This document shows positions 1,323 to 16,052 of a stretch of DNA of 64,000 bases, piece after piece. This DNA is from Spiribacter vilamensis (GTDB taxonomy: Bacteria > Pseudomonadota > Gammaproteobacteria > Nitrococcales > Nitrococcaceae): the NCBI RefSeq assembly GCF_004217415.1, contig NZ_SHLI01000001.1:930001-994000 (forward strand), in the 5' to 3' direction. Below the pieces are notes generated by a model. The model saw only the letters and a list, made by a program, of their open reading frames with translations, made no database searches and was not told the origin of the DNA. The number at the start of each line of letters is the position of its first letter. Positions within the stretch are counted from its first letter, which is position 1. A program made the translations under genes and the position numbers.

Positions 1323-3248
1323 TTAATCCTCCACAAGCGTTCGGCCCAGACGGGCAACATCCTGATTGAGACGCTCCATGAACGTCTCCAGCGGCATGGA
1401 ACCGAGATCCTCACCGATCCGTGTACGGACCGCAACCTGTCCCGATTCCCGCTCCTTGTCACCGACGACTGCCATATACGGCACTCGACGAATCGTATGC
1501 TCACGGATCTTAAAGCCGATCTTCTCGTTCCTCAAGTCACACTCCGCCCGGAATCCCCTTTCAGTCAGGGACTTCTGAATCGATCGGGCGTAATCCGCGT
1601 GGCGATCGGTGATGTTGACGACCTCGACCTGGGTCGGCACGAGCCAGACCGGCCAGTCGCCCCCGTAGTGCTCGGTGAGGACGCCGATGAACCGCTCGAA
1701 CGATCCGAAGATCGCGCGGTGGAGCATCACCGGCACTTCCCGATCGCCGCTTTCAGCGACGTATTCCGCATCGAGCCGGCCCGGCATGGAGAAGTCCACC
1801 TGCATGGTCCCGCACTGCCAGACCCGGTTGAGGCAGTCGCGCATGGCGAGCTCGATCTTGGGCCCGTAGAAGGCGCCCTCCCCCGGGTTGACGGTGAACG
1901 CCATATCTTTCGCCTGGAGCGCGTGTTCGAGCGCCGATTCGGCCCGATCCCAGAGGGCGTCCTCGCCGACGCGCTTCTCCGGCCGTGTAGACAGTGCGAC
2001 CTGGACCTCGTCGAAACCGAAGTCGTGATAGACGCTGAATGCCAGATCCAGAAAAGCCGACACCTCGTCCTGGAGCTGGTCCTCGGTACAGAAGATATGG
2101 GCATCGTCCTGCGTGAAATTGCGCACGCGCATCAGCCCGTGAAGCGTGCCGGACGGCTCGTTGCGATGACAGTTGCCGAACTCCGACAGGCGAAGTGGCA
2201 GATCGCGATAGCTCTTCAGCCCCTGGTTGTATACCTGGACATGGCAGGGGCAGTTCATGGGCTTGACCGCGTAGTCGCGGTGCTCCGAGTGCGTCGTGAA
2301 CATGTCCTCGCGGAACTTCTCCCAGTGACCGGAACGCTCCCATAGGCTGCGGTCCACCAGCTCGGGCGTCCGGATCTCCTGGTAGCCATGCGCCGACAGG
2401 CGCCCACGCAGATAGTCCTGCAGCGTCGTGTAGATACGCCAGCCGTTGGGATGCCAGAACACCATGCCCGGGGATTCTTCCTGGATGTGGAAGAGGTCCT
2501 GGCTGCGTGCGATACGACGGTGATCGCGCTTCTGCGCCTCCTCGAGGAGTTTGAGATGCGCCTTCAGGGCCTTGCGATCGCCGAATGCCGTCCCGTAGAT
2601 ACGCTGCAGCATCTCGTTGTTGGCGTCGGCGCGCCAGTAGGCCCCCGCCAGCTTGGTGAGCTTGAACGCCTTCAGGAACCGCGTGTTGGGCACATGCGGG
2701 CCGAGGCACATATCCACGTATTCCTGGTGATGGTAGAGCGCCATCGAATCGACGTCGGTCAGGTTCTCGACCAGCTCGACCTTGTAGTTCTCGCCGCGCT
2801 CGCGGAACAGCTGAAGCGCCTCGTAGCGCGGTGTCACGCGCTTGACCACATCGTATTCCTGGTCGATCAGCGCCGCCATGCGCTGCTCGATTTGCTCCAG
2901 ATCTTCCGGGTGGAAGCCGGCGTCGTAGCGGATGTCGTAATAGAAACCGCCCTCCACCACCGGGCCGATCGCCATCTGTGCCTCTGGATAGAGCTGCTTG
3001 ACCGCCTGACCGAGCAGGTGGCAGCACGAGTGGCGGATAATTTCGAGACCTTCCGGATCTTTTGGCGTAATGATCTGCAGATCGGCGTCGGTATCGATCG
3101 GATCACAGGCATCGACCAGCGTGCCATTAACGCGGCCGGCGACCGTCGCCTTTGCAAGGCCGGCGCCAATATCCTGTGCGACTTCGAGAACGGATAACGG
3201 AGTGGCGTAGTCGCGCTGACTGCCATCGGGAAGGGTGATAAGGGGCAT
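1323..3248 (-). CDS. thrS: Threonyl-tRNA synthetase
   Basis: This 641-aa class II aminoacyl-tRNA synthetase attaches threonine to tRNA-Thr. It begins [20 protein letters not shown] (TGS domain). The second, editing domain shows [19 protein letters not shown], giving the zinc/editing HxxxH-type site. The catalytic core has [14 protein letters not shown] and [20 protein letters not shown], and the anticodon-binding domain is at the C-terminus. Length matches E. coli ThrRS (642 aa). Its stop lies 2 bp before the AUC start of infC, and its last codons contain the infC ribosome-binding site, so the two genes are translationally adjacent. Confidence 0.98.
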
Positions 3249-3309: not shown

Positions 3310-3386
3310 TGGTAGGCGCGAGTGGATTCGAACCACCGACCCCCACCATGTCAAGGTGGTGCTCTAACCTACTGAGCTACGCGCCT
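3310..3386 (-). tRNA. tRNA-Val, anticodon GAC
   Basis: The minus strand folds into a standard cloverleaf: acceptor AGGCGCG/CGCGCCU, D-stem GCUC/GAGC, anticodon stem CCACC/GGUGG with loop UUGACAU (anticodon GAC), and T-arm GGUGG-UUCGAAU-CCACU. The terminal CCA is encoded. It reads GUC/GUU valine codons. It lies 61 bp upstream of thrS on the same strand. Confidence 0.96.
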
Positions 3387-3602
3387 GTCGTCAGGGGCGA
3401 AAGTATAGCGGCATTGGGCGGATTTGCCAAAGGGTTGAAGACCCAATGGGTCCATACGCTGCTTTGACCAAAACCTGCTGGCCTACAAGGCAGAACGCGA
3501 ACGCGTTAGCCAGGAGGCAATGGACGAGCTGACTGAGGAGACAGGGCCTGGATGTGGGGTACTGACGTGCGTTTTGCCGTGGCATCCGACACTAAGGCTG
3601 GT

Positions 3603-4754
3603 TCAGGTCACTCTTGTATACCCCCCTTTCACACCATCTTTTGCCAACACCCACTGCCAGAGTTGAATATTACGAGCACGAAAAGCGCCGGCACAGGAAA
3701 GTAGATAATAACGCCACATTCGGTAGAAGCGCTCGCCAAGCTCAGCCTGAAATTCAGGCCAGGCCGCTTCAAAGTTCCGGCACCACGCCAATAGCGTTTT
3801 ATCATAGTCGGCACCGAAGTTATGCAAATCTTCCACCACGAACAGCTCGTCCACCGCATCACCAATCTGGCCAAGCGAGGGCAATTCACCGTTCGGGAAA
3901 ATATACTTGTCAATCCACGGGTCAGGGTAGGAATTGCGCAGATTCCTGCCAATGGTATGCAGTAAGAAAAGCCCACCCGGGTTCAGGCAACGGTGGGCGA
4001 CCTCCATAAAGGTACGATGGTTTTTCGATCCAACATGCTCGAACATGCCAACGCTGACGATACGATCAAATTTTTCATCTATTTCCCGGTAATCCGTCAG
4101 GCGAAAATCCAGCTTGAGATGAGGGTACTTCGCTGTGGCCCACTCCACCTGTTCTTTTGAAATGGTCATGCCTACCGCCTCTACCCCGTAATGCTCGGCC
4201 GCATAAGCCATAAGGCTGCCCCAGCCGCATCCGATGTCCAGCAGGCGCATGCCAGGCTGCAACTGCAGCTTGCGGCAGATCAGATCCAGCTTGGCGAGCT
4301 GCGCCTCCTCCAGATTACTTGCATCTTTCCAGTATCCGCAGGTGTAGGTCATGCGGGAGTCGAGCATGGCGCCGTAGAATCTGTTTCCCAGATCGTAATG
4401 GCTCTTGCCAACCTCCCAGGCACGTTTTTCAGTTTGCCGATTCAGATACTTGGTTTTGAGGATATGGGGGAGGATTTTAGTCGGCTTGATCTGGTCGGGA
4501 ATTTTGCCGCTGAGCAGTTTATAAAAGAATTCGTCCAGCTCATCTACTTCCCAGGCGCCATTCATGTAGGCCTCACCGAAACCAAGGTTACCCTGAGCCA
4601 TGGCTGCCTCGGGTACGCCGTGTGCATTGAAACGAATATCCCACGGTCGAGACCCACCAATCTTTATATCAGCTTTTGCCAGTAAATCCGCCGCGAACTG
4701 ATGCGTCTTTTTGTCGGGGTCAAAAAAAGCGACACTGGATTTTTCTGTGCTCAT
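3603..4754 (-). CDS. cfa: Cyclopropane-fatty-acyl-phospholipid synthase
   Basis: The 383-aa product matches E. coli Cfa in length (382 aa). It has the SAM-binding motif MRLLDIGCGWGSLMAYAAE, the preceding DSRMTYTCGYW and NLEEAQLAKLDLICRKL segments, and GMFEHVGSKNHRTFMEV. It methylenates cis double bonds of membrane phospholipid acyl chains using S-adenosylmethionine, usually for stress protection. The ATG at 4754 (MSTEKSS) is chosen because upstream in-frame codons overlap the rhodanese gene and give an unrelated Arg-rich extension. It follows the rhodanese stop by 23 bp, so it may be the last gene of the arsenic cluster. Confidence 0.95.
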   Translation of the reverse strand: MSTEKSSVAFFDPDKKTHQFAADLLAKADIKIGGSRPWDIRFNAHGVPEAAMAQGNLGFGEAYMNGAWEVDELDEFFYKLLSGKIPDQIKPTKILPHILKTKYLNRQTEKRAWEVGKSHYDLGNRFYGAMLDSRMTYTCGYWKDASNLEEAQLAKLDLICRKLQLQPGMRLLDIGCGWGSLMAYAAEHYGVEAVGMTISKEQVEWATAKYPHLKLDFRLTDYREIDEKFDRIVSVGMFEHVGSKNHRTFMEVAHRCLNPGGLFLLHTIGRNLRNSYPDPWIDKYIFPNGELPSLGQIGDAVDELFVVEDLHNFGADYDKTLLAWCRNFEAAWPEFQAELGERFYRMWRYYLLSCAGAFRARNIQLWQWVLAKDGVKGGYTRVT

Positions 4755-4777
4755 CACTACCGCCGTTGCCGCTGGTC

Positions 4778-5656
4778 TCAAACAGACTGATCGACGCCGC
4801 CGGGATTCTGCCCGGCGGGGTGCACCGGGCTTGCGCGTTCGACGGTTGCAGGCATCTGCACCCGGCTCCATTCGGCCCACGATCCCTCGTAGTTTTGCAC
4901 GTGTACAAAGCCCGCGATCGTTAGTGCCAGAACGGTATGCGCGGCGCGAATGCCACCCTGGCAATAGGTAATGATTTCAGCCTCCGGCCGTAACCCGAGC
5001 AGCGTGAAGTGCGCGCGCAACTCATCTGCAGACCGGAAGCGGCGGGTGGCGGGATCAAGGCAGTCGGTCCAGACCATATGCAGGGCGCCAGGAATGTGCC
5101 CGGCCATAGAGGCTTCGGTTGGTGTGGCACGCAGCCACTCCGCATCCCCGCGCACGTCGACAATCTGCCGATCCGGGTCGTCTATCGCGGCGCGCACATC
5201 CGCCGTTTCGGCAAGGTATTCCGGGTTTGGATATGCTTTGAACGCCCCCGGTTCCGGAGCCGGCGGGGCTTCGTCGGTCCTGGGCAGCCCTGTCGATATC
5301 CAGTTGTCCCAACCGCCATCCAGAACAACCGCGTTGTCGTGGCCGTAGTAGCGTAGAACCCACCACAGCCGCGCACCGAACAGGTTGTTACCGTCGTCAT
5401 AAGCCACCACCAGCGTGTCCGGCCCGACACCAAGCCGGGCCATTTCCGCTGCGAAATCCTCGGGGTCTATCACCCGACCGGATTGGTGCAACAGCGGAGT
5501 AAGCATGAGTTGCCGCGCGCCGGGGATGTGCGCCTCGGCATAACCGTCGCCCTTACGGGCATCGACGATCACCAGCCCCGGCGCGTCCAGTCGTGCGGCC
5601 AACCAGTCGCCACTGACAAGGGGCGTTTCGGGCATGTCCGCCGTTGCAGTCCTCAC
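4778..5656 (-). CDS. Two-domain rhodanese-type sulfurtransferase
   Basis: The 292-aa product has two rhodanese repeats. The N-terminal one (about 15-130) has the RKGDGYAEAHIPGARQL segment and no catalytic Cys. The C-terminal one carries the active-site loop YCQGGIRAAH and the upstream HIPGALHMVW motif. Such enzymes move sulfane sulfur from thiosulfate or 3-mercaptopyruvate to thiol acceptors. The GTG at 5656 is supported by AGGAGG 7 nt upstream, and it overlaps the arsA stop, so the two genes are translationally coupled. Its place in an arsenic operon suggests help with thiol or sulfur supply or formation of thioarsenic species; that role is inferred. Confidence 0.9.
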   Translation of the reverse strand: MRTATADMPETPLVSGDWLAARLDAPGLVIVDARKGDGYAEAHIPGARQLMLTPLLHQSGRVIDPEDFAAEMARLGVGPDTLVVAYDDGNNLFGARLWWVLRYYGHDNAVVLDGGWDNWISTGLPRTDEAPPAPEPGAFKAYPNPEYLAETADVRAAIDDPDRQIVDVRGDAEWLRATPTEASMAGHIPGALHMVWTDCLDPATRRFRSADELRAHFTLLGLRPEAEIITYCQGGIRAAHTVLALTIAGFVHVQNYEGSWAEWSRVQMPATVERASPVHPAGQNPGGVDQSV

Positions 5657-7407
5657 ACCAATTCCTCCTGATGCCCGACAAGCGCACGCAACTTTGCGGC
5701 TCCGATCGGGTCTTCAGCGAGCATCGGAACAACCGCGTATCGGGAACTCAGGGTTGTTTCGACCCGGGTTATTTCCGATGCCTCTGTTGCAGCCCGTGCA
5801 ACCAGCAGTGGATGGCTGGTCTCGGTGGCTGCCAGGCTGGCGTTGACCACCCAGGCGTAAGGCGTGATTTCCGCTCTTTTCAGATCGTCCTGTAGGCGCG
5901 CGGCTTCCAGCACCGGTGTGGTTTCCGGCAGGGTCACGATCAGCACTTTGGTCTGCTTCGGATCCTGCAGACGCATCATCGGTGTCACCATGTTTGCGCT
6001 CGTCTCTCCGGCATGACGCATGATGTCCCGGTGGTACGAGCCGGTTGCATCCAGCAGCAACAGTGTATGACCGGTCGGGGCCGTATCCATGATCACGAAT
6101 TTATGCCCGGCTTCGCGGATGGTTCTGGAGAAAGCCTGGAACACCGCGATTTCCTCGGTGCAGGGTGAGCGCAGATCTTCCTCCAGCATCTTGCGGCCCT
6201 CCGCATCGAGGCTGGCACCACGGGTCGCCATGATGTGATCGCGATAAGTCTGGGTTTCCACCTCGGGATCAATGCGACTGACGGTCAGGTTGTCGACATC
6301 GCCCGCAAGGGTTTCAGTCAGGTGAGCAGCCGGGTCGGTTGTGGTCAGCAATACCTCGTGGCCACGGGCGGCCAGCTCTACGGCAGCGGCTACTGCGATC
6401 GTGGTCTTGCCAACCCCGCCTTTGCCCATGGTCATCACCAGGCCCTTACCATCGGCCTCAATGTCATCAACCAGGCGGGAAAGGGGGGGCAAATTATCCA
6501 GAGCACGCCGGGGTGTCCCGGAGCGCATGGTTTCAACCGGCTGATTCATTCGCCGCAGGGCATCCAGCCCCACCAGGTTTTCAGGGCGCAGGTAGAAGTG
6601 GCTTTGCGGTAAACCCGCGAGATCTGAATCGACTTCTTCCACGGCGGTGCGCTCACGCTCAATCATACTGGCGGCCAGAGCATCGTCTGAACCCTCAGCC
6701 GGCATCATGCCGTTAATGGCGAGATGCTGATTGCGTATGCCGATATCGGCCAGCTCCCGGTGGGTTCGCGCGGCTTCCGCCATTGAACTTGTCCGGGGGC
6801 GGGCCACCAGGATGAGACGGGTCAGGTACTCGTCAGAAAGGCTGTCGACGGCGGCCGCGTAGCGCTCGCGTTGCTGCTCCAGCCCAGCCAGGGGCCCGAG
6901 GCAGGAGGCGTCACCCCCGGTTTCCAGGAACCCGGTCCAGGCACCAGGTAACTTCAGCAGCCGTATGGTATGGCCGGTGGGCGCGGTGTCGAAAACAATA
7001 TGGTCGTAGCGCCCGATCAGTGCCTCGTCCGTGAGCATGGCAGTGAACTTGTCAAACGCGGCGATCTCGGTGGTGCAGGCCCCCGAGAGCTGTTCCTGGA
7101 TGCTGGCAACAGCCTCCTCTGGCAGACGTTCCCGTACGGGACCGAGGATCCGTTCACGATACTCTTCCGCCGCCGCTTCAGGATCGATTTCCAGTGCTTC
7201 AAGCCCAGCAACATCGGGAATCGGCTTGATGTGATTACCAATGCGGGTATCGAACACCTGGCCGACATTGGATGCCGGATCGGTACTCACCAGCAACACT
7301 TTCTGCCCCGCGTCCGCAAGGTTAACGGACGTAGCGCAGGCCAGTGAGGTTTTACCAACGCCCCCTTTGCCGGTGAAGAATACGAACTTAGGTAGATTAT
7401 CGAACAT
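5653..7407 (-). CDS. arsA: Arsenical pump-driving ATPase ArsA
   Basis: The 584-aa protein is close to plasmid R773 ArsA (583 aa). Two homologous halves each have a GKGGVGKT Walker A loop (about residues 13-20 and 328-335) and a DTAPTGHT motif. The metal-site cysteines are kept at about C111 (GACTTEIAAF), C169 (DASCLGPL) and C416 (SPCTEEIAVF), equivalent to R773 C113/C172/C422. It hydrolyses ATP to drive arsenite efflux, here presumably through the ACR3 permease of the same operon. The ATG at 7407 is preferred to upstream starts because AAGGA lies 8 nt before it. It lies 11 bp after arsD. Confidence 0.97.
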   Translation of the reverse strand: MFDNLPKFVFFTGKGGVGKTSLACATSVNLADAGQKVLLVSTDPASNVGQVFDTRIGNHIKPIPDVAGLEALEIDPEAAAEEYRERILGPVRERLPEEAVASIQEQLSGACTTEIAAFDKFTAMLTDEALIGRYDHIVFDTAPTGHTIRLLKLPGAWTGFLETGGDASCLGPLAGLEQQRERYAAAVDSLSDEYLTRLILVARPRTSSMAEAARTHRELADIGIRNQHLAINGMMPAEGSDDALAASMIERERTAVEEVDSDLAGLPQSHFYLRPENLVGLDALRRMNQPVETMRSGTPRRALDNLPPLSRLVDDIEADGKGLVMTMGKGGVGKTTIAVAAAVELAARGHEVLLTTTDPAAHLTETLAGDVDNLTVSRIDPEVETQTYRDHIMATRGASLDAEGRKMLEEDLRSPCTEEIAVFQAFSRTIREAGHKFVIMDTAPTGHTLLLLDATGSYHRDIMRHAGETSANMVTPMMRLQDPKQTKVLIVTLPETTPVLEAARLQDDLKRAEITPYAWVVNASLAATETSHPLLVARAATEASEITRVETTLSSRYAVVPMLAEDPIGAAKLRALVGHQEELV

Positions 7408-7418
7408 TTCCGTCATCC

Positions 7419-7793
7419 TTAGCAGCAGGAGCTTTTCGTGTTTGATGAGCAGCACGGCGAGGCTGATGCGGCGCTATCCTGATCCTCAAATGCCAGACTG
7501 CTCCAGGCAGCCAGCTCCTCGCGTGAGGGAAAGCGCGCCCTGGAAACCATCTCACCATCCACCAGGATCGCCGGTAGACCATCGCTTCCGGAGGCCTGTA
7601 TTAACGCGTTCACTTGCTCATTGATCGTGAACTCTGCGGGCTCCTGGCTCAGGTTGATCCGCCGCACGGTCACGCCCTGGCTCTGCAGCCAGTCCAGGTC
7701 GGCGGCAAACGTTATTACCTGTTGGTCGACGTCGGCGCCACAAACGCCGGTTGAGCAACACATGGGTGGGTCATAAACGGTGACTGTCGTCAT
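7419..7793 (-). CDS. arsD: Arsenite metallochaperone ArsD
   Basis: This 124-aa protein has C12, C13 and C18 (YDPPMCCSTGVC), the same positions as the arsenite-binding triad of R773 ArsD. It also has vicinal cysteine pairs near the C-terminus (CCSSNTKSSCC). ArsD passes As(III) or Sb(III) to ArsA and weakly represses some ars promoters. The start at 7793 is chosen because GAGG lies 8 nt upstream; the codon two triplets earlier is too close to it. It lies directly upstream of arsA, as expected for the chaperone-ATPase pair. Confidence 0.95.
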   Translation of the reverse strand: MTTVTVYDPPMCCSTGVCGADVDQQVITFAADLDWLQSQGVTVRRINLSQEPAEFTINEQVNALIQASGSDGLPAILVDGEMVSRARFPSREELAAWSSLAFEDQDSAASASPCCSSNTKSSCC

Positions 7794-7826
7794 TTCCATA
7801 TCCTCTATTCTTCGCGTCGGTTTTAA

Positions 7827-8630
7827 TCAATTGCCCTCTTCAGGCACCAGCAAAACGGGCACATCCAGCCCGCGGCAGGCCGCCTCGGCCACACTCCCCA
7901 GAAGCAGCTGCTGCAAAGGATTGCGCCCCCGCTTGCCAAGCACGAGGAGGTCCACGTTTTCCGCATTGGCTATCTCGGTCAGCGCGCGACGCGGATCACC
8001 CTCCGCGACACGGGTCTCAAGCGATGCAATGCCTTCGGAGAGCTCCGCCAGATGAGACTTCGCCTCGGCGACGGCACTGCTCTCGCTCCCGGCGTCATCG
8101 AGCACCGTGACGGCCAGCGCCCTCTGCGCCTGCCCGGCCAGATCGGCGAAAACCGCCTCCGCGGACTTCGCGGCTGTTGAACCATCCGTCGCCAGGAGAA
8201 CGGTTCGATCGCTTGCCAGGCATTCCTCGCCCACGGGCTCCAGCCATAGCGGCAGTCCTGCCAGTCGAGCGGTGTCAAGCGCGATACTGCCGAGGAAAAA
8301 CTCATGGAAGCGGCTCTGGCCCCGGCTGCCGATCAGCAGCAGATCAGCGCCGGTATCATCAGCGGCCGCGACCAGCTCCCCCCCGGGCTCGCCGGTTCGG
8401 ATCTGCCAGTCCACATCCAGACCCGATGCCCCGAGCTGTTCGGCCTCCTCCGTCAGGCGCTGCTCGTACCAGGCCCGGTGGCTTTCCTCGGGCACTGCTG
8501 GATAGCGGCTGCTCAGTACATACACCAGTGTTGCGCGTTCCAGCCCCGAATCCCGTAATGCCTCGACCCGCCGGCGAACACAGGGCCAGGCCGGTGAAAA
8601 ATCGATTCCGATCAGTGCGTGCTTAAACAT
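7827..8630 (-). CDS. Tandem universal stress protein (UspA family)
   Basis: The 267-aa protein has two Usp domains. Each has the ATP-binding signature G-x2-G-x9-G-[S/T]: GSRGQSRFHEFFLGS in the first half and GKRGRNPLQQLLLGS in the second. The domain starts MFKHALIGIDFS and TVLLATDGSTAAK are also typical. Usp proteins bind nucleotides and support survival under stress; no enzymatic role can be read here. ATG 8630 follows AGGAG by 6 nt and begins 10 bp after acr3, so it is part of the arsenic operon. Usp genes are often found beside arsenite permeases. Confidence 0.93.
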   Translation of the reverse strand: MFKHALIGIDFSPAWPCVRRRVEALRDSGLERATLVYVLSSRYPAVPEESHRAWYEQRLTEEAEQLGASGLDVDWQIRTGEPGGELVAAADDTGADLLLIGSRGQSRFHEFFLGSIALDTARLAGLPLWLEPVGEECLASDRTVLLATDGSTAAKSAEAVFADLAGQAQRALAVTVLDDAGSESSAVAEAKSHLAELSEGIASLETRVAEGDPRRALTEIANAENVDLLVLGKRGRNPLQQLLLGSVAEAACRGLDVPVLLVPEEGN

Positions 8631-8640
8631 CACTCTCTCC

Positions 8641-9717
8641 TTAGCTACTCGCCTGCGCTTCCGGGAAATACCCGCGCGTCTGATTGGCGATCCAGACCAG
8701 CCCCAGCATTAATGGCACCTCGACCAGGACGCCGACCACGGTGGCCAGCGCCGCCCCGGACTGCATCCCGAATAGCGAGATCGCTGCCGCCACGGCCAGC
8801 TCGAAGAAGTTGCTGGCGCCGACCATCGCGCCCGGGGCCGCCACGCTGTGGGGCACGCTCCAGGCCTTGGCCCAGCCGTAGGCGATCGCAAAGATCAGGA
8901 AGGTCTGAACAATCAGCGGCACCGCGATCAGGACGATGTGCAGCGGGTTTTGCAGGATGACCTCGCCCTGGAATGCGAACAGCAGCACCAGCGTCAGGAT
9001 CAGGCCAACGGGTGTCACCGGGCCCAACCGCTTCATGAAGACGTTGTCGAAGTAATCGATGCCCTTGCTGGCGATTACGTAGCGGCGCGTGGCGTAGCCG
9101 GCGGTCAGCGGAATCACGATGTAGAGAAAGACCGACAGCCCGATCGTCTCCCAGGGAACGGTCATATCCGAGAGCCCCAGCAGGAACATCACGATCGGCG
9201 CGAACGCGAACAGCATGATGAGATCGTTGAGTGATACCTGCACCAGGGTGTAGGCGGCGTCCCCCCGCGTGAGGTAGCTCCAGACGAAGACCATGGCGGT
9301 ACAAGGGGCTGCCCCTAGCAGAATCGCGCCGGCCAGGTACTCACGGGCCAGGCCCGCCTCGATCAGTGGTTCGAAGAGCACGACCAGGAAGAACCACGCA
9401 ATGGCGAACATCGTGAAAGGCTTGATCAACCAGTTCACCGTCGTGGTGATAATCAACCCCTTGGGCTGGCGACGTACGCCCGCGATGGAATCGAAATCCA
9501 CCTGCACCATCATCGGGAAGATCATGGCCCAGATCAGGATCGCGACCGGGATTGACACCTGTGCGTACTCGAAACGCGACAGCAGCTCGGGCACCACGGG
9601 CGCGAACTGGCCCACGGCAATGCCGGTCACGATCGCCAGCGCCACCCACACCGACAGGTAGCGCTCAAAGAGGCCCATGCCCTCCTTGATATCCGGGGAA
9701 TTATCAGTCTTGCTCAC
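8641..9717 (-). CDS. acr3: ACR3-family arsenite efflux permease
   Basis: The 358-aa inner-membrane protein has about ten hydrophobic segments and the ACR3 hallmark LLGAAPCTAMVFVWSYLTRG with the conserved essential Cys, plus LIMLFAFAPIVMFLLG. It exports As(III), probably energised by ArsA here. The start codon is GTG (9717), 6 nt after GGAGG. It is the first gene of a minus-strand operon acr3-usp-arsD-arsA-rhodanese(-cfa). Neither an arsR regulator nor an arsC reductase is recognisable upstream. Confidence 0.95.
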   Translation of the reverse strand: MSKTDNSPDIKEGMGLFERYLSVWVALAIVTGIAVGQFAPVVPELLSRFEYAQVSIPVAILIWAMIFPMMVQVDFDSIAGVRRQPKGLIITTTVNWLIKPFTMFAIAWFFLVVLFEPLIEAGLAREYLAGAILLGAAPCTAMVFVWSYLTRGDAAYTLVQVSLNDLIMLFAFAPIVMFLLGLSDMTVPWETIGLSVFLYIVIPLTAGYATRRYVIASKGIDYFDNVFMKRLGPVTPVGLILTLVLLFAFQGEVILQNPLHIVLIAVPLIVQTFLIFAIAYGWAKAWSVPHSVAAPGAMVGASNFFELAVAAAISLFGMQSGAALATVVGVLVEVPLMLGLVWIANQTRGYFPEAQASS

Positions 9718-10044
9718 GCTTAACCTCCATCAATTTCTCGGTAAGCCCGCCCAGGTCCCGGGAAGCCAGCACGGCCCGGAGCGTGTCCCGGGTGCCACTC
9801 ACCCCGACGCCCCTCCTGCTCCAGCAACAACAGGCTGTTGGGTCGGGTTATGTCTGAAAGCGCTCAAAAGCACGTCTCAAATGTCAGCGTTACCCGTATA
9901 TATGTATATGCGTATGTAAAGATAAGCAGATTCTCAGGTGACCAGGCGCTATGTCAATATCCGTTTGCCGTGGATGTGATCTTTCCCATCCCCAGTGGAA
10001 ACCTCGGTAACTTGCAGACTGGAGGTGAACCATGGCGACGACGA
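9718..10044. other. Intergenic region upstream of the ars operon
   Basis: I find no supportable gene here. The minus strand contains a short open frame (about 9712-9800) that ends over the acr3 start and resembles nothing I recognise; it could be the tail of a lost upstream ars gene. An AT-rich tract at about 9895-9930 with repeated TATATG/CATATA elements in otherwise GC-rich DNA is the most likely place for an ars promoter/operator. Confidence 0.35.
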
Positions 10045-10290
10045 TCAGGAACATGACCAGGAACAGGTAGCCGCGCTAGAGCGCCGAGCATCGAACCAAA
10101 GCCCCGCACTTGCTGAGGGGGTAGGTATCGCCGCCACGGCCCACGAGACGCCGTTCAGCCGGGCGGTACCGATGAGGCTGCAGATAAACGCCACGCTTTC
10201 CCCGCCCCGGTCGGAGCCGGCGAAGAGGTAGTTCCTGCGTCCCTGCGGCACGGTACGTAGCGCCCGATAGGCGGCGTTGTTGTCGATCTT
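10045..10290 (-). pseudogene. IS66-family transposase (TnpC) C-terminal remnant
   Basis: One minus-strand frame reads KIDNNAAYRALR followed by GRRNYLFAGSDRGGESVAF and ICSLIGTARLNGVSW. This is the conserved end of IS66 transposases (consensus like IDNNPVERAIRP...GRKNYLFAGSDEGG...SLIETAKLNGV). No start, DDE core or intact ends remain, and the sequence breaks off on both sides. It marks an old insertion at the boundary between the ars operon and the antiporter module. Confidence 0.85.
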
Positions 10291-10405
10291 CGTGCTTGCG
10301 TCGCAAGTGCGCCTAGCAACCGGCTTCCTGAGCGCAGCCCGTCTCGCAGAGCGCTCGGAAGCCCGAGTAACCGCCGGCCTGCAGTGCCCTGATTAGCGCC
10401 CGAAT

Positions 10406-10539
10406 GCGACGAACAACTCTCATGGCCTCGAGCGCGTGACATTGAGAAACCGACGTGACCCACCTATGTGCACACATGTGGGCGGTTAGCTTGTCACTGT
10501 ATTTACAACCGCAAATGCGCGCAAAGGGGAAAATTGAGT
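10406..10539. repeat. Non-coding direct repeat, copy A (~134 bp)
   Basis: This segment is about 84% identical, in the same orientation and almost without gaps, to 13079-13213. Shared blocks include CAACTCTCATGGC, CGTGACATTGAGAA, TGTGCACACATGTGGGC and CGCAAATGCGC. It contains a partly decayed palindrome around TGTGCACA. The two copies flank the 2.5-kb block with the membrane protein and K+/H+ antiporter. I see no coding capacity. Confidence 0.85.
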
Positions 10540-10629
10540 GGTGCTCAGTTTCAATCGCTCGCTAGAGAGCTGTCATCCGTGCCTAAGCTGCGCGTTTGCC
10601 AAAGAGGTGGAAAGCCCTTGGAGAGCGCA

Positions 10630-11178
10630 CTACATCATCCGATTTTTATCACGCGACAGATCAATGTCCACGCCGCCGGCCGCCATGATGTCGCGCAGCA
10701 AAACGATGATACCGGCAACGCAGAGGAACAGACTGAAAATCAACGCGACGGTCTGAACATGGCGTAACACAAAGAAAAACCCGGGCTTTTCGATGGGGAT
10801 CCAGATAATCGGCGCCATTACGCCCAGTAGAAAGATGAAGGCATAGAGGAGATAGCGGATAAACTCCACGGGGACTTTGCGTATCGTCAGGCCGTAGACC
10901 AGCACCGCGACGATCAGCACGCTCGCCGTGGCCTGAACCACGATCATGGCGCGGTCCTGGATAAAGGCGATCCGGCCTTCTTCGTAAGCCACCGCACCCA
11001 CTTCACCGAAAACGGTCACCAGCGCGAGATTGATCAGCAGGAACAGCAGGCAGAGGCCGTTGGGGAGCCACAGCATCGGATCCTGCCGCTGCATTCGGAA
11101 GCCACCGATCCACCACCAGGTACCAGCCCAGAGGGGTAAGGCCAGCGTGTAGGTTGCAATGGCGATCATCTGGTGCAT
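10630..11178 (-). CDS. Five-helix membrane protein, unknown function
   Basis: The 182-aa product has about five hydrophobic segments, including YTLALPLWAGTWWWIGG, GLCLLFLLINLALVTVFG, ASVLIVAVLVYGL, LLYAFIFLLGVMAPIIW and VALIFSLFLCVAGIIVLL, and a short charged C-terminus. I recognise no catalytic motif or family. The ATG at 11178 follows GGAG by 7 nt. It is divergent from the antiporter gene with a 75-bp shared intergenic region, so the two may be co-controlled; both lie between the two copies of the 134-bp repeat. Confidence 0.75.
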   Translation of the reverse strand: MHQMIAIATYTLALPLWAGTWWWIGGFRMQRQDPMLWLPNGLCLLFLLINLALVTVFGEVGAVAYEEGRIAFIQDRAMIVVQATASVLIVAVLVYGLTIRKVPVEFIRYLLYAFIFLLGVMAPIIWIPIEKPGFFFVLRHVQTVALIFSLFLCVAGIIVLLRDIMAAGGVDIDLSRDKNRMM

Positions 11179-11253
11179 AAACACGCTCCATCCGTCCAGT
11201 CGTTCGTCGTTGAGGTTATCATCGAGTTTTCATTATGACTGGACGAAATCACC

Positions 11254-12969
11254 ATGCTTGAATGGCTACCTCCCCTGGTTCTGATCGGTTCGAGCCTTGT
11301 GCTCGTGTCGGTGCTGACCAGTGTGCTGGCCTTTCGTATTGGCGCGCCGCTCTTGCTGTTTTTCCTGGCGATTGGCCTGATCGCCGGTGAGGACGGACTG
11401 GGGGTCGTCTATAACGACTGGTCCGGGGCCTACCTGATTGGCAGCATGGCGCTTGCCATCATCCTGTTTGACGCAGGCTTCGGGACCAAACTCCGCTACT
11501 TCAAAAAGGCGGCGGCGCCGGCGCTGACCCTGGCCACCCTCGGGGTCCTGATCACCACCGGCTTTGTCGGCGTTGCTGCACACGTCCTGTTTGGTCTGCC
11601 CTGGACCCATGCCCTGTTACTGGGGGCGATTGTCAGCTCCACTGACGCCGCGGCGGTGTTCTACCTGCTGCGCGTGGGCGGGATTACGCTGAGAGAGCGC
11701 GTGCGGGCGACACTGAGCGTGGAGTCGGGCTCCAACGACCCGATCGCGATTTTCCTGGTGACCGCGCTGGTGGAGTTGATCCGCGCACAATCCGCCCTGG
11801 GAGAGCTCACCTTTGAGGTGTTGACGGGCTTCGGGTTGCAGATGGGAGGCGGGATCGGCGTCGGCCTCGTCGGCGGATGGTTACTGGTGCGGCTGATGAA
11901 CACCATCGACCTCGAGGCCGCGCTCTATCCCATTCTTGTGCTCGCAGCCGCACTGCTGCTGTTCGGCGCGGCGAGCCAGTTCGGCGGCAGTGGCTTCGTG
12001 GCGGTATACGTCGCCGGCCTGGTGGCGGGTAACCACGCTGTCCCCCATCGAACGGCACTCCGGCGCTTTCAGGATGGCACCACCTGGCTTGCCCAGATCC
12101 TGATGTTTCTGGTGCTGGGCCTGCTCGCCACACCCTCGGACTTTCCCGCGGTGATACTGCCCGCAATGGGCCTTGCGCTTTTCCTGATGTTCGTCGCACG
12201 GCCGATTGCCGTGGGGATCTGCCTGCTGCCCTTTCGTTTCTCGCCCAAAGAGACGGCGTTCATTGGCTGGGTGGGGTTGCGCGGGGCGGTGTCCATTCTG
12301 CTGGCGATCCTGCCCTTTCTCGGAGGGATCGAGAATGCCCAGCGGTTTTTCAACGTCGCCTTCATCATGGTGCTCACCTCGCTGCTGGTGCAGGGGTGGA
12401 CCATCAAGCCCGTAGCGCAGCGACTGGGGTTGATCGTGCCCAGACGCCTGGGGCCGGTGGAGAAAATCGAACTGGAACTGCCCGGCACCGCGCATCATGA
12501 ACTGGTTGTCTATCACGTAATGCCCGAGAGCCCCATTGTTGGCGGGGCGCGCCTGCCGCGCTGGGCCCGTCCGGCGCTGGTGCTCAGAGACGGCCGATCC
12601 ATGCATTTTCGCAAGGCCGGCTATTTGCAGCCCGATGACTACATCTACATATTCATGTCGCCCCAGTACGCCGCGGCGCTGGATCACCTGTTCGCCGGCA
12701 GTCCCCGGCAGGAGGTATCGGCGCGGAAGTTTTTCGGCGACTTCGCCATCGCCACCGACGCCCCGATGAAGGCGCTCATCGATGTCTACGGGGTCAAACT
12801 GCCGCCAACCGCAACCAAAGTGGAGACCACCTCGGTGGGGGCGTATCTACAGTCCCGACTAAAGCGTCCCGAGCCAGGGGACCGGGTCCGCCTGGGCTCG
12901 GTGGTTTTGATTGTTCGGGCGATCGATGACAGGAACAGGATCACGGCCATCGGGTTATCCTTTGATTAG
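11254..12969 (+). CDS. K+/H+ antiporter, CPA1 family (NhaP2/CvrA-like)
   Basis: This 571-aa protein matches the NhaP2/CvrA architecture (E. coli CvrA 578 aa). About twelve membrane helices span 1-390, with ESGSNDPIAIFLVTALVEL holding the conserved N-D ion-binding pair and the FIGWVGLRGAVSILLAIL segment. A TrkA-C/RCK-C domain (about 400-480) and a C-terminal transporter-associated domain (about 485-571) follow. It exchanges cytoplasmic K+ (or Na+) for protons, for osmotic and pH balance. The last codons (ITAIGLSFD) contain one copy of a 23-bp sequence repeated at 13751. Confidence 0.93.
   Translation: MLEWLPPLVLIGSSLVLVSVLTSVLAFRIGAPLLLFFLAIGLIAGEDGLGVVYNDWSGAYLIGSMALAIILFDAGFGTKLRYFKKAAAPALTLATLGVLITTGFVGVAAHVLFGLPWTHALLLGAIVSSTDAAAVFYLLRVGGITLRERVRATLSVESGSNDPIAIFLVTALVELIRAQSALGELTFEVLTGFGLQMGGGIGVGLVGGWLLVRLMNTIDLEAALYPILVLAAALLLFGAASQFGGSGFVAVYVAGLVAGNHAVPHRTALRRFQDGTTWLAQILMFLVLGLLATPSDFPAVILPAMGLALFLMFVARPIAVGICLLPFRFSPKETAFIGWVGLRGAVSILLAILPFLGGIENAQRFFNVAFIMVLTSLLVQGWTIKPVAQRLGLIVPRRLGPVEKIELELPGTAHHELVVYHVMPESPIVGGARLPRWARPALVLRDGRSMHFRKAGYLQPDDYIYIFMSPQYAAALDHLFAGSPRQEVSARKFFGDFAIATDAPMKALIDVYGVKLPPTATKVETTSVGAYLQSRLKRPEPGDRVRLGSVVLIVRAIDDRNRITAIGLSFD
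12943..12965. repeat. 23-bp perfect direct repeat, copy 1 (in antiporter 3' end)
   Basis: The 23 bases beginning ACGGCCATCG and ending ATCCTTTGA are repeated exactly at 13751-13773. This copy encodes the end of the antiporter. Together the copies bracket the ~790-bp segment with repeat B and the GlcG/HbpS-like gene. Confidence 0.9.
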
Positions 12970-13078
12970 GCTTCAATGATGGAGGTTGACGACGTCCAGC
13001 CGAGCGATGCCCTCGCCTGGTCGGAGCCGGCGGCTGGCCGCGGAGGTCGGCCTGGAGCACCCCGGTGTACGCCCAAGG

Positions 13079-13213
13079 GCGACGAGCAACTCTCATGGCA
13101 TCAAGATCGTGACATTGAGAATTCGACATGACTCACGTGTGTGCACACATGTGGGCAGTTAACTTGTCACTGGATTTACAATCGCAAATGCGCACTCAAA
13201 GAAAAAGTTGAGT
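13079..13213. repeat. Non-coding direct repeat, copy B (~135 bp), upstream of the GlcG/HbpS-like gene
   Basis: This is the second copy of 10406-10539. It contains a 20-bp near-perfect palindrome, CACGTGTGTGCACACATGTG (one mismatched pair; the inner 12 bp TGTGTGCACACA is perfect). It ends 59 bp before the start codon at 13272, so it covers the likely promoter of that gene. The palindrome could be an operator; copy A keeps a weaker version. The rest of the 12970-13271 gap shows no gene. Confidence 0.85.
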
Positions 13214-13271
13214 TATATTCGGCTTCCGTTTTTTGCGAGATCGATCAATCCTGAAAACCTGGAGAAAAAGC

Positions 13272-13739
13272 ATGGCCACCGAGGTATTTCGACGCACGAC
13301 CCATCTGCCGCTCAAGCAAGCACGCCAGATCATTAGCGCCGCCCTGGCGGAGGCGAGACGGCAAGAACTTGAGCCCCTGACGGTGGTGGTGCTCGATGAC
13401 GGCGGGCATCTCGTTTCCGCCGATAGCGAGGATGGCTCCGGCGTACTGAGGCTCCAGATCGCCCAGGGCAAAGCCGGTGCTGCCCTGGGATTCGGCGTCT
13501 CGAGCTCTACGGTCGGGGAACGCACTCAAGGCCGAGACGCTTTCGTGACTGGCGTCGCCGCTGCCTCCGAAGGTCGATTCGTCCCCGTTCCCGGCGGTGT
13601 CCTGGTCCTCGACGGGAAGCGGGAAATCATCGGTGCCGTGGGTGCCAGCGGCGATAGCCCCGGCAACGACCAGGCCTGTGTCCTGGCCGGCATCGATGCC
13701 GCGGGTCTTGGCATCGGCCTTGATGCCGCTGAGGGCTGA
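13272..13739 (+). CDS. GlcG/HbpS-family protein (haem-binding-like)
   Basis: The 155-aa product has the GlcG/HbpS fold signature: LKQARQIISAALAEARRQ, LTVVVLDDGGHLVSADSEDG, repeated Gly-rich segments, and IGAVGASGDSPGNDQACVLA at the end. Family members include extracellular haem-binding HbpS and glycolate-operon GlcG; the true ligand is usually unknown. The ATG at 13272 follows GGAG by 7 nt; an upstream in-frame start (13233) lacks this. I see no signal peptide, so a cytoplasmic location is likely. Repeat B lies just upstream and the gene sits between 23-bp direct repeats, suggesting acquisition as a small cassette. Confidence 0.85.
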   Translation: MATEVFRRTTHLPLKQARQIISAALAEARRQELEPLTVVVLDDGGHLVSADSEDGSGVLRLQIAQGKAGAALGFGVSSSTVGERTQGRDAFVTGVAAASEGRFVPVPGGVLVLDGKREIIGAVGASGDSPGNDQACVLAGIDAAGLGIGLDAAEG

Positions 13740-13750
13740 CGGCGCGTCGG

Positions 13751-13773
13751 ACGGCCATCGGGTTATCCTTTGA
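13751..13773. repeat. 23-bp perfect direct repeat, copy 2
   Basis: This is an exact copy of 12943-12965, the 3' end of the antiporter gene, lying 11 bp after the GlcG/HbpS-like stop codon. It is a scar of duplication or insertion. Confidence 0.9.
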
Positions 13774-13796
13774 CTGATGTTCAGGAAAAGCCCGAC

Positions 13797-14486
13797 TTAA
13801 TGCTTCCTGAGCCACTCCAGGAGAGCGTCGGCGGTGGCTGCCGAGGATGGCGGGTTCTGGCCGGTGATCAGCTGGCCGTCGACACGCACGTAGGACGTGA
13901 AGTCATCAGCCTTCGAGTAGATGCCGCCGCAGGCCTGGAGCGCGTCCTCCACACGATGAGGCACCACATCGGTCAGCCCGACCGCGTCCTCTTCGCCATT
14001 GGTGAAGCCCGTCACCTCGCGTCCCTTGACCAGCGGCTCATTGTCATCGGTCTTCACGCCCACCAGCACAATCGGCGCGTGGCAGACGGTCGCCACCGGT
14101 TTGCCCTGCGCGATAAAGGTCTCGATCAGACGGATCGAGTCGGCATCTTCGGCGAGGTCCCAGAGCGGGCCATGGCCACCGGGATAGAACACGGCATCAA
14201 AGTCGTCAGCGCTCATATCGCTGAGTCGATGCGTCGTGGCCAGCGCGGCCTGCGCGTCCGTATCGATCTCGAAGCGCCGCGTCGCGTCCGTGTGGCTCTC
14301 CTCCGCATCACTCGCCGGATCAACCGGCGGCTGTCCGCCTTGCGGAGAGGCCAGCGTCAGAGTCGCGCCTTCGTCCTTGAGCGTGTAATAAGGGGCCGCA
14401 AGCTCTTCAAGCCAGAAGCCGGTCTGGCGACCGGTGTCTCCAAGTTGATCGTGCGAGGTCAAAACAATCAGAATCCGTGGGGTCAT
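13797..14486 (-). CDS. DJ-1/PfpI superfamily protein, Hsp31-like (putative glutathione-independent glyoxalase)
   Basis: This 229-aa protein has the nucleophile elbow VATVCHAPIVLVG with the conserved Cys, the acidic partner in GFWLEELAAPY, and the segments ADDFDAVFYPGGHGPLWDL and VTGFTNGEEDAVGL of the YDR533C/Hsp31 subfamily. Such proteins convert methylglyoxal to lactate and/or act as stress chaperones. The ATG at 14486 follows GGGAG by 6 nt; an adjacent in-frame TTG is too close to it. It neighbours the haemoglobin and alcohol dehydrogenase genes. The exact activity is inferred from the subfamily. Confidence 0.9.
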   Translation of the reverse strand: MTPRILIVLTSHDQLGDTGRQTGFWLEELAAPYYTLKDEGATLTLASPQGGQPPVDPASDAEESHTDATRRFEIDTDAQAALATTHRLSDMSADDFDAVFYPGGHGPLWDLAEDADSIRLIETFIAQGKPVATVCHAPIVLVGVKTDDNEPLVKGREVTGFTNGEEDAVGLTDVVPHRVEDALQACGGIYSKADDFTSYVRVDGQLITGQNPPSSAATADALLEWLRKH

Positions 14487-14604
14487 CAATTACTCCCTTG
14501 AGAGAATCCGCGTATGGAAGCGGGCGGCTGCTACCGCCGCTATCGATTGATTTGGGGGCTCGCCAACGGGAAAACAAGAGAGACTCGAGGACAAAGCCCA
14601 CAGC

Positions 14605-14985
14605 ATGACCTCAAAGCCTGACCTGGACAGCCCGGAGGCCATCCACGCCCTGGTGGAGGGCTTCTACGAGCGCCTGCTCAACGACCCACTGATGCGCCCG
14701 GTCTTCATGGAGACCGCAGGGATCCGGATCGAGGACCACTTGCCGACGATCGAGGCGTACTGGCGCAAGATGCTCCTCGGCGAGAAGGGGTGCTATACCC
14801 GCAACATGGTGGCGAAACACGAAGCGGTCCACGCAAAAGGTCCGCTCAGGCCGGAGCATTTCGAGCGCTGGAGCGAGCATTTCCACCAGACGCTGGATGA
14901 GCTTTTTTCCGGTCCGATGACGGATCGTGCCCATCTGCTGGCGGACCGGATTCTCGTGAATCTCCAGCGCCGGCTGCTGGGTTGA
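14605..14985 (+). CDS. Group III truncated haemoglobin
   Basis: The 126-aa globin matches the group III (P) family. It opens with IHALVEGFYERLLNDPLMRPVF and has the HEAVHAKGPLRPEHFERW segment with the F-helix histidine (H72 or H76) that ligates haem iron, then FHQTLDELFSGP. Group III globins are linked to NO or peroxide handling, but physiology varies. It is convergent with the downstream alcohol dehydrogenase (8-bp gap). Confidence 0.93.
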   Translation: MTSKPDLDSPEAIHALVEGFYERLLNDPLMRPVFMETAGIRIEDHLPTIEAYWRKMLLGEKGCYTRNMVAKHEAVHAKGPLRPEHFERWSEHFHQTLDELFSGPMTDRAHLLADRILVNLQRRLLG

Positions 14986-14993
14986 GTCTAAAT

Positions 14994-16052
14994 TCAGGCG
15001 GCGTTTTTCAGGGTCGCCATGTCGATCACGTAGCGGTACTTCACCTGGCTCTTCTGCACCTTCTCGTAGGCATCGTTGATGTTGTTGATGTCCAGCATCT
15101 CGATGTCGCAACGCACGTCGTGTTCGGCGCAGAAGTCCAGCACCTCCTGGGTTTCGGGCATGCCACCGATCAGTGAGCCCGCCAGCACGCGGCGCTTCAG
15201 CACCAGGTTGCCCGCGTTCAGGGTCGGATCCACGGGCTCCAGCAGACCCACGAGGATATGGGTGCCGTCATACTTGAGGCAGGCAAGGTAGGGGTTCAGG
15301 TCGTGCTGCACCGGCACGGTATCGAGCATGAAATCGAACGTCTCGGCCGCGTCCGCCATCTGCTGATCATCGGTAGAGATAATCACGTGATGGGCGCCCT
15401 GATTTTTCGCCTCGGCGACCTTGTTTTCGGACCGGGTAAAGATGGTGACTTCCGCCCCCATGGCCCGCGCGAACTTAACGCCCATGTGCCCGAGGCCACC
15501 CATGCCGATCACACCGACCTTATGGCCGGCCTTTACGCCGTAGTGACGCAGCGGTGAGTAGGTGGTGATGCCGGCGCAGAGCAGCGGCGCGGCGGCGGCC
15601 ATTTCCAGTTTCTCGGGGATACGCACCACGAAGCGTTCGCTGACTACGACCTTCTCGGAATAACCACCCATTGTGATGGACCCGTCGTGGCGGTCCTGGC
15701 CGTTATAAGTGGCTGTCATCCCGTTGAGGCAGTACTGCTCCAGCCCGTCCTGGCAGGCCTCGCATTCGCGGCAGGCATCGACCATGCAACCGACGCCGAC
15801 ACGGTCACCCGCCTGGTAGTTACCGACCTGATCGCCGACGGCTGTCACGCGGCCCACGATCTCGTGGCCCGGCACCAGCGGATACTGGGTGACTCCCCAG
15901 TCGTTGTGCGCGAAGTGGATGTCGGTATGGCAGACGCCGCAATAATCGATCTCGATGGCGACGTCATCCGCCCTCAGTTCGCGGCGGTCGATACCGTGCG
16001 GCGCGAGACCGGAGTCGGGTGCGGTGGCGGCGTAGGCTTTGGTGTTGGTCAT
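14994..16052 (-). CDS. Zinc-dependent NAD(P)-alcohol dehydrogenase (CAD/YahK-like)
   Basis: The 352-aa medium-chain dehydrogenase has the catalytic zinc region DYCGVCHTDIHFAHNDWG and LVPGHEIVGRV, and four cysteines for the structural zinc in the segment DACRECEACQDGLEQYC. The nucleotide-binding motif is GMGGLGHMGVKFARAMGA. It resembles cinnamyl-alcohol-type and YahK aldehyde reductases, which reduce aldehydes with NADPH. It lies by Hsp31-like and haemoglobin genes, so aldehyde detoxification is plausible. Confidence 0.93.
   Translation of the reverse strand: MTNTKAYAATAPDSGLAPHGIDRRELRADDVAIEIDYCGVCHTDIHFAHNDWGVTQYPLVPGHEIVGRVTAVGDQVGNYQAGDRVGVGCMVDACRECEACQDGLEQYCLNGMTATYNGQDRHDGSITMGGYSEKVVVSERFVVRIPEKLEMAAAAPLLCAGITTYSPLRHYGVKAGHKVGVIGMGGLGHMGVKFARAMGAEVTIFTRSENKVAEAKNQGAHHVIISTDDQQMADAAETFDFMLDTVPVQHDLNPYLACLKYDGTHILVGLLEPVDPTLNAGNLVLKRRVLAGSLIGGMPETQEVLDFCAEHDVRCDIEMLDINNINDAYEKVQKSQVKYRYVIDMATLKNAA

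What the first reader, a model, noticed from the sequence alone, without database searches (positions are those of the whole stretch)
12943..13773. GlcG/HbpS-like gene bracketed by an exact 23-bp duplication of the antiporter end
The last bases of the antiporter gene are repeated perfectly 11 bp after the GlcG/HbpS-like gene, so a ~790-bp block appears inserted at the antiporter end with its target regenerated. 23 bp is long for transposon target duplication and recalls integration of small cassettes or template switching.
Basis: seen in the sequence. Interest (0 to 1): 0.55.

Follow-up and report, generated by a model that had tools for sequence, protein, structure and literature searches.

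The report
Imported gene beside a duplicated gene end
A small gene that probably came from another bacterial family sits just after an ion-pump gene, and the last 23 letters of the pump gene appear again on its far side; this is most likely an ordinary scar of DNA uptake rather than a new mobile element.

Summary
The 23-mer occurs exactly at 12943-12965 and 13751-13773, the second copy 11 bp after the GlcG/HbpS-like stop codon; it is far beyond chance. New detail: both copies run on in frame to Asp + stop (GAT-TAG and GAC-TGA), so both look like complete antiporter ends. The second lies about 20 bp from the stop of a convergent DJ-1 gene.

The gene between them (155 aa, PF03928) is closer to homologues from another family of the order (up to 69%) than to those of its own Spiribacter-type genus (53-60%); a tree forcing it into its genus is rejected (p-AU 0.004). 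The insert also holds scraps of decayed IS66 transposase, a remnant that recurs upstream of the antiporter at about 80% identity. No transposase or integrase gene was seen in the insert, and no Ku match in the genome. No held relative shows the empty site, so insertion is inferred, not shown.

Best reading (0.42): foreign DNA was joined at the antiporter end by homology-assisted or illegitimate recombination and brought its own antiporter terminus. Rivals: a dead site-specific island, a long target-site duplication, template switching. A real but probably ordinary scar.

The parts
11254..12969 (+). potassium/proton antiporter gene, 571 aa, ending ...TAIGLSFD-TAG
   Evidence: NCBIfam PRK05326.1-2, 746.9 bits against a cut-off of 309; Pfam Na_H_Exchanger
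12943..12965 (+). 23-bp repeat, copy 1, inside the antiporter's last codons, followed by T-TAG
13019..13074 (-). scraps of an IS66 tnpC gene with internal deletions (27 of 27 and 27 of 29 bases matching, plus a weak 14-base match)
13048..13213 (.). copy of the IS66-remnant-plus-unknown-tail repeat, 80% identical to 10375-10539
13272..13739 (+). GlcG/HbpS-like gene, 155 aa (PF03928), probable xenologue
13740..13750 (.). 11-bp right edge of the insert
13751..13773 (+). 23-bp repeat, copy 2, followed by C-TGA, i.e. Asp + stop in the antiporter frame
13797..14489 (-). convergent DJ-1/PfpI family gene; its stop lies 19 bp beyond the TGA of copy 2
10147..10539 (-). upstream decayed IS66 tnpC remnant (10147-10411) and the shared tail (to 10539)

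Best explanation
A segment carrying a foreign GlcG/HbpS-like gene and an already decayed IS66 scrap was joined between the convergent antiporter and DJ-1 genes by homology-assisted illegitimate recombination, or by a short single crossover. The incoming DNA carried an antiporter 3' end of its own. One antiporter terminus (GAT-TAG) now closes the gene, and the other (GAC-TGA) remains as a 23-bp relic beside DJ-1. The repeat is then an overlap of two true antiporter ends, not the product of a staggered cut. Shown: the exact repeat, Asp-stop on both sides, the foreign position of the gene in the tree, the IS66 debris. Inferred: insertion as such, the donor, the order of events, the recombination route.
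For: Both copies read ...GLSFD-stop with different Asp and stop codons, whereas only 426 of 55,972 GA dinucleotides in 400 kb of this genome are followed by a pyrimidine and a stop codon; two true ends need no such coincidence. Copy 1's TAG is shared with the two orthologues, of six examined, that have the same C-terminus, while TAG ends only 49 of 216 long frames in the sample. The gene looks foreign. No transposase or integrase gene seen in the block. A larger-scale parallel, duplication of part of a gene end around integrated DNA by single crossover, is described in E. coli (PMC3240628, passages).
Against: 23 bp is short for RecA-dependent crossover (recalled). No donor or empty-site genome was found. 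The 23 bases are identical although the codons just beyond differ, which needs two very similar alleles with different stops. The left edge of copy 2 is arbitrary in this model and unexplained.
Confidence: 0.42

Rival explanations
1. Remnant of a site-specific island that integrated into the 3' end of the antiporter gene. The element's attachment core matched the last 23 bp and its arm supplied Asp + TAG, restoring the gene; the native end (Asp + TGA) was displaced to the right; the integrase was later lost.
For: Gene-end duplication with a restored stop is the classic outcome of such integration (recalled). Copy 2 lies where a native end next to convergent DJ-1 would lie.
Against: No integrase gene recognised in the block; the three PF00589 matches in the genome lie outside the window. 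The 23-mer is absent from viral contigs. The insert is only 785 bp. The shared TAG with orthologues would be coincidence.
Confidence: 0.18
2. Staggered break or transposition-like insertion with a 23-bp target-site duplication (fill-in of long overhangs); GAT-TAG at the left edge arose by chance or was favoured by selection.
For: Exact direct repeat at both edges. Long variable duplications are reported for IS1549/IS1634, 8-514 bp (PMC2266710, passages).
Against: No inverted repeats reported at the edges, no transposase gene recognised in the block, no Ku match in the genome; Asp-stop on the insert side is a 0.76% event.
Confidence: 0.16
3. Template switching: during repair or replication the antiporter's last 23 bp were copied a second time at the right edge of the block, and the gene's native end is copy 1.
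For: Copy 1's TAG matches the two orthologues with the same C-terminus; both edges are sharp.
Against: Copy 2's following C-TGA would be a 0.76% coincidence, and its fit as a compact end beside DJ-1 would be accidental.
Confidence: 0.14
4. IS66 moved the block (composite-transposon-like).
For: IS66 remnants on both sides of the antiporter, in direct orientation.
Against: Both remnants are decayed and differ at 26 of 145 aligned bases, while the 23-mer is unchanged; probability about 0.01 to 0.12 if of the same age. No IS66 ends were identified at the 23-mer. IS66 makes 8-bp duplications (recalled).
Confidence: 0.05

Closest known systems
Homology-facilitated illegitimate recombination / single crossover with partial homology (PMC3240628, passages)
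   Same: Foreign DNA joined at a gene end; part of the gene end duplicated around it
   Different: There the duplications sequenced were 109-950 bp; here 23 bp; no donor known
Integrase islands in gene 3' ends (recalled)
   Same: Gene-end core repeated on the far side; stop codon restored
   Different: No integrase gene recognised, no known attachment site, only 785 bp
IS1549/IS1634 long target duplications (PMC2266710, passages)
   Same: Direct repeats much longer than usual
   Different: No such element or inverted repeats seen here
EfgA / DUF336 (HbpS-like) proteins (6bws; PMC8153426, passages)
   Same: Nearest solved relative of the GlcG-like protein, E 2.7e-16; full-length domain
   Different: Ligand and function untested; NCBIfam equivalog PRK09732.1 is far below its cut-off (37.1 against 246 bits)

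Membership tests
HbpS-like protein family (PF03928) | Match to the family profile over its cut-off | tested here: met
   98.8 bits against a cut-off of 25, positions 1-127 of 128
HbpS-like protein family (PF03928) | Haem or aldehyde binding | not testable with these tools
   Needs protein
Transposable element / IS insertion | Transposase gene in the insert | tested here: not met
   Only tnpC scraps, about 56 bp; PF03050 has no match inside the block
Transposable element / IS insertion | Terminal inverted repeats at the edges | tested here: not met
   None reported at 12966 or 13750, minimum 12 nt
Transposable element / IS insertion | Direct repeat of the target | tested here: inconclusive
   23-bp direct repeat present, but the flanks suggest two true gene ends
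Site-specific island in a gene 3' end | Integrase gene in the element | tested here: not met
   PF00589 matches in the genome lie outside the window
Site-specific island in a gene 3' end | Empty site (attB) in relatives | tested here: inconclusive
   No relative held with the antiporter-DJ-1 junction
Integron cassette | attC site and neighbouring integron integrase | not tested
   attC was not modelled; no inverted repeat reported at the right edge
Homology-assisted illegitimate recombination | Donor DNA with antiporter end next to the gene | tested here: inconclusive
   Not seen in the antiporter or GlcG regions read; same-species strains not held
Horizontal acquisition | Gene tree conflicts with kinship | tested here: met
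   Grouping with seven genus rows rejected, p-AU 0.0042; the window protein has a long branch

The most novel reading that the evidence does not exclude
A minimal 785-bp non-autonomous gene cassette that enters the 3' end of a housekeeping gene through a 23-bp core and carries its own copy of the last codon and stop, so that the target gene is left whole.
Probability: 0.08. Interest if true: 0.6.

Novelty: new member of a known kind. Interest (0 to 1): 0.2.

Why it matters
It is a readable scar of how a single foreign gene can be added to a small halophile genome without harming the neighbouring gene. If strains with the empty or donor arrangement turn up, the scar could tell staggered-cut insertion, site-specific integration and homology-assisted joining apart. 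As it stands it is a modest genome-evolution observation.

Tried and rejected
Chance repeat: rejected. IS66 as the mover: disfavoured. Ku-type end joining: no Ku match in the genome (the control matched 1 of 14 genomes). Viral attachment site: the 23-mer is absent from viral contigs; the one match to a degenerate form, in L126, lies in an A+T-rich viral contig with no further similarity and is taken as chance. Phage records: only short weak matches for the left junction (4 records, E 0.04 to 0.5) and none for the right. Plasmids: 53 records match the upstream IS66 remnant, none match 12966-13271; for the protein 55 records match, all under 60% identity. The 23-mer in genome contigs: none. Empty site: the antiporter DNA is found in 6 of 13 other genus genomes (a seventh, G013, has only 34 bp) and in none of the regions read is it beside GlcG or DJ-1. 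Identity of the ~130-bp tail of the 166-bp repeat: unsolved; among the 369 genomes of the class search, the only match outside the window's own genome was 30 bp at E 8e-4, and none among the 22 other family genomes. Promoter or terminator at the junctions: none by simple scan. The integrase region at G000:C1:1,047,089 has no tRNA in 16 kb and a longest exact direct repeat of 20 bp; not pursued. Literature on islands in gene ends: one search, no paper held all six terms.

Full report
Observation. The 23-bp sequence at 12943-12965 is repeated exactly at 13751-13773. It is the only exact direct repeat of 18 bp or more in the 64-kb window. 0 of 100 shuffles had two matches even with 3 mismatches allowed, and the longest local direct repeat in 30 Markov sequences was 17 bp. 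In a sample of 400 kb of the same genome, 11 exact direct repeats of at least 18 bp within 3 kb were found, three of them at least 23 bp: a tandem run, the loop of intergenic hairpins, and a probable ABC-protein motif (read from the letters). None of these three is a gene-end duplication on that reading; the other eight were not all inspected.

What is there. The genome has 2.08 Mb in two contigs. The nearest antiporter orthologue with a species name is from Spiribacter salilacus, 80% identical; an unnamed gammaproteobacterial assembly has 81%. The order of parts is: IS66 remnant (10147-10539), an unassigned gene (10630-11184, minus; no NCBIfam match), the potassium/proton antiporter (11254-12969), which holds repeat copy 1 in its last codons, 785 bp between the copies, repeat copy 2, and the convergent DJ-1/PfpI gene (13797-14489). 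The 785 bp hold IS66 tnpC scraps, a 166-bp copy of part of the upstream remnant and its tail (80%), and an intact GlcG/HbpS-like gene. An IS66 element with long open tnpC, tnpB and tnpA frames lies elsewhere in the genome (L047; the tnpB and tnpA names are my reading).

Key detail. Copy 1 continues GAT-TAG and copy 2 continues GAC-TGA; in the antiporter frame both spell ...GLSFD-stop. Six orthologous 3' ends were examined; two share GLSFD-stop, both as GAC-TAG, and four end differently. In the 400-kb sample only 426 of 55,972 GA dinucleotides are followed by a pyrimidine and a stop codon. If only one side were a true gene end, the other would be a sub-1% coincidence, unless selection favoured it. 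The stop of copy 2 lies 19 bp from the DJ-1 stop. DJ-1 homologues in G004 and G013 have unrelated 3' flanks, so they do not settle which junction is native.

Foreign gene. The genome has one PF03928 protein. It is 69% identical to a homologue in G040 (another family of the order) and 53-60% identical to those of its own genus; by that search 8 of the 13 other genus genomes have a homologue, one of them (G010) as two partial matches. Of 27 homologues recovered, 3 short ones were dropped, leaving 24 plus the window protein. It joins two rows of the other family with modest support (91/86) and has a long branch. Holding it together with the seven genus rows is rejected, p-AU 0.0042. Long-branch effects are possible, so foreign origin is likely but not proven.

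Relatives. The antiporter DNA is found in 6 of 13 other genus genomes. In three of the six regions fetched, thrS lies beside it on the same strand. In the window thrS (1323-3248, minus) is 8 kb away and on the opposite strand. In none of the regions read are GlcG or DJ-1 beside the antiporter.

Age. Over 145 aligned bases the two IS66-remnant copies differ at 26 positions. If the 23-mer were as old as that divergence, all 23 bases would be unchanged with probability about 0.01 if both copies drift, or 0.12 if only one does. This weakly suggests that the repeat is younger than the decay, so that IS66 did not make it.

Mechanism. I favour joining of foreign DNA that brought its own antiporter terminus, because it makes both Asp-stop ends true ends and fits the TAG shared with two orthologues. 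A larger-scale parallel is described in E. coli: most events there were duplications of part of lacZ by single crossover, 109-950 bp in 14 sequenced clones (PMC3240628, passages). A lost-integrase island explains the restored stop as well but lacks an integrase. A transposition-type duplication lacks edge inverted repeats and a transposase; IS1549 and IS1634 are reported to make direct repeats of 8-514 bp (PMC2266710, passages), but no such element is seen. Ku was not found. Template switching remains open.

Function of the gene. Its nearest solved relative is EfgA (6bws, E 2.7e-16), described as a formaldehyde sensor found almost exclusively in methylotrophs (PMC8153426, passages). With a DJ-1/PfpI gene, a globin-like gene and a zinc alcohol dehydrogenase next door, a role in aldehyde or redox stress is a guess, not a result.

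Verdict. A real, non-random scar around a probably foreign gene, with an undecided and most likely ordinary mechanism.

Noticed in passing
L118 15777-15859, 16423-16505, 16597-16679 (G000:C1 about 1,315,777-1,316,679): Three intergenic hairpins share a nearly constant 33-nt loop (GCTCATGAGATCGTCTTCGCCGATCAAAATCGC and a variant) while their arms of about 25 bp differ in sequence from hairpin to hairpin yet stay self-complementary (22, 20 and 23 of 25). These 3 were all that was found, up to 7 mismatches, in 497,504 bases (the window and 24 stretches of this genome).
   Followed up: partly
L119 2918-3030, 4405-4520, 5495-5580: A dispersed intergenic repeat of roughly 100 bp, three copies within 3 kb, with a core like CACACCCCCAATACGTA..GATCAGTGTGTATAGGGGATG.
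   Followed up: no
window 10375-10539 and 13048-13213: Two copies of an IS66 fragment fused to a ~130-bp tail of unknown identity; in the genus and family genomes searched (22 others) the tail was found nowhere else.
   Followed up: partly
window 13272-16052: EfgA-like DUF336 protein beside DJ-1/PfpI, globin-like and zinc alcohol dehydrogenase genes: a possible aldehyde-stress cluster.
   Followed up: partly
window 3310-11254: Between tRNA-Val/thrS and the antiporter lie about 8 kb with reading frames that look like arsenic-resistance genes (arsA, arsD, an ACR3-type pump; names from reading the translations, not tested) and the IS66 remnant; in three relatives thrS lies close to the antiporter instead.
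   Followed up: partly
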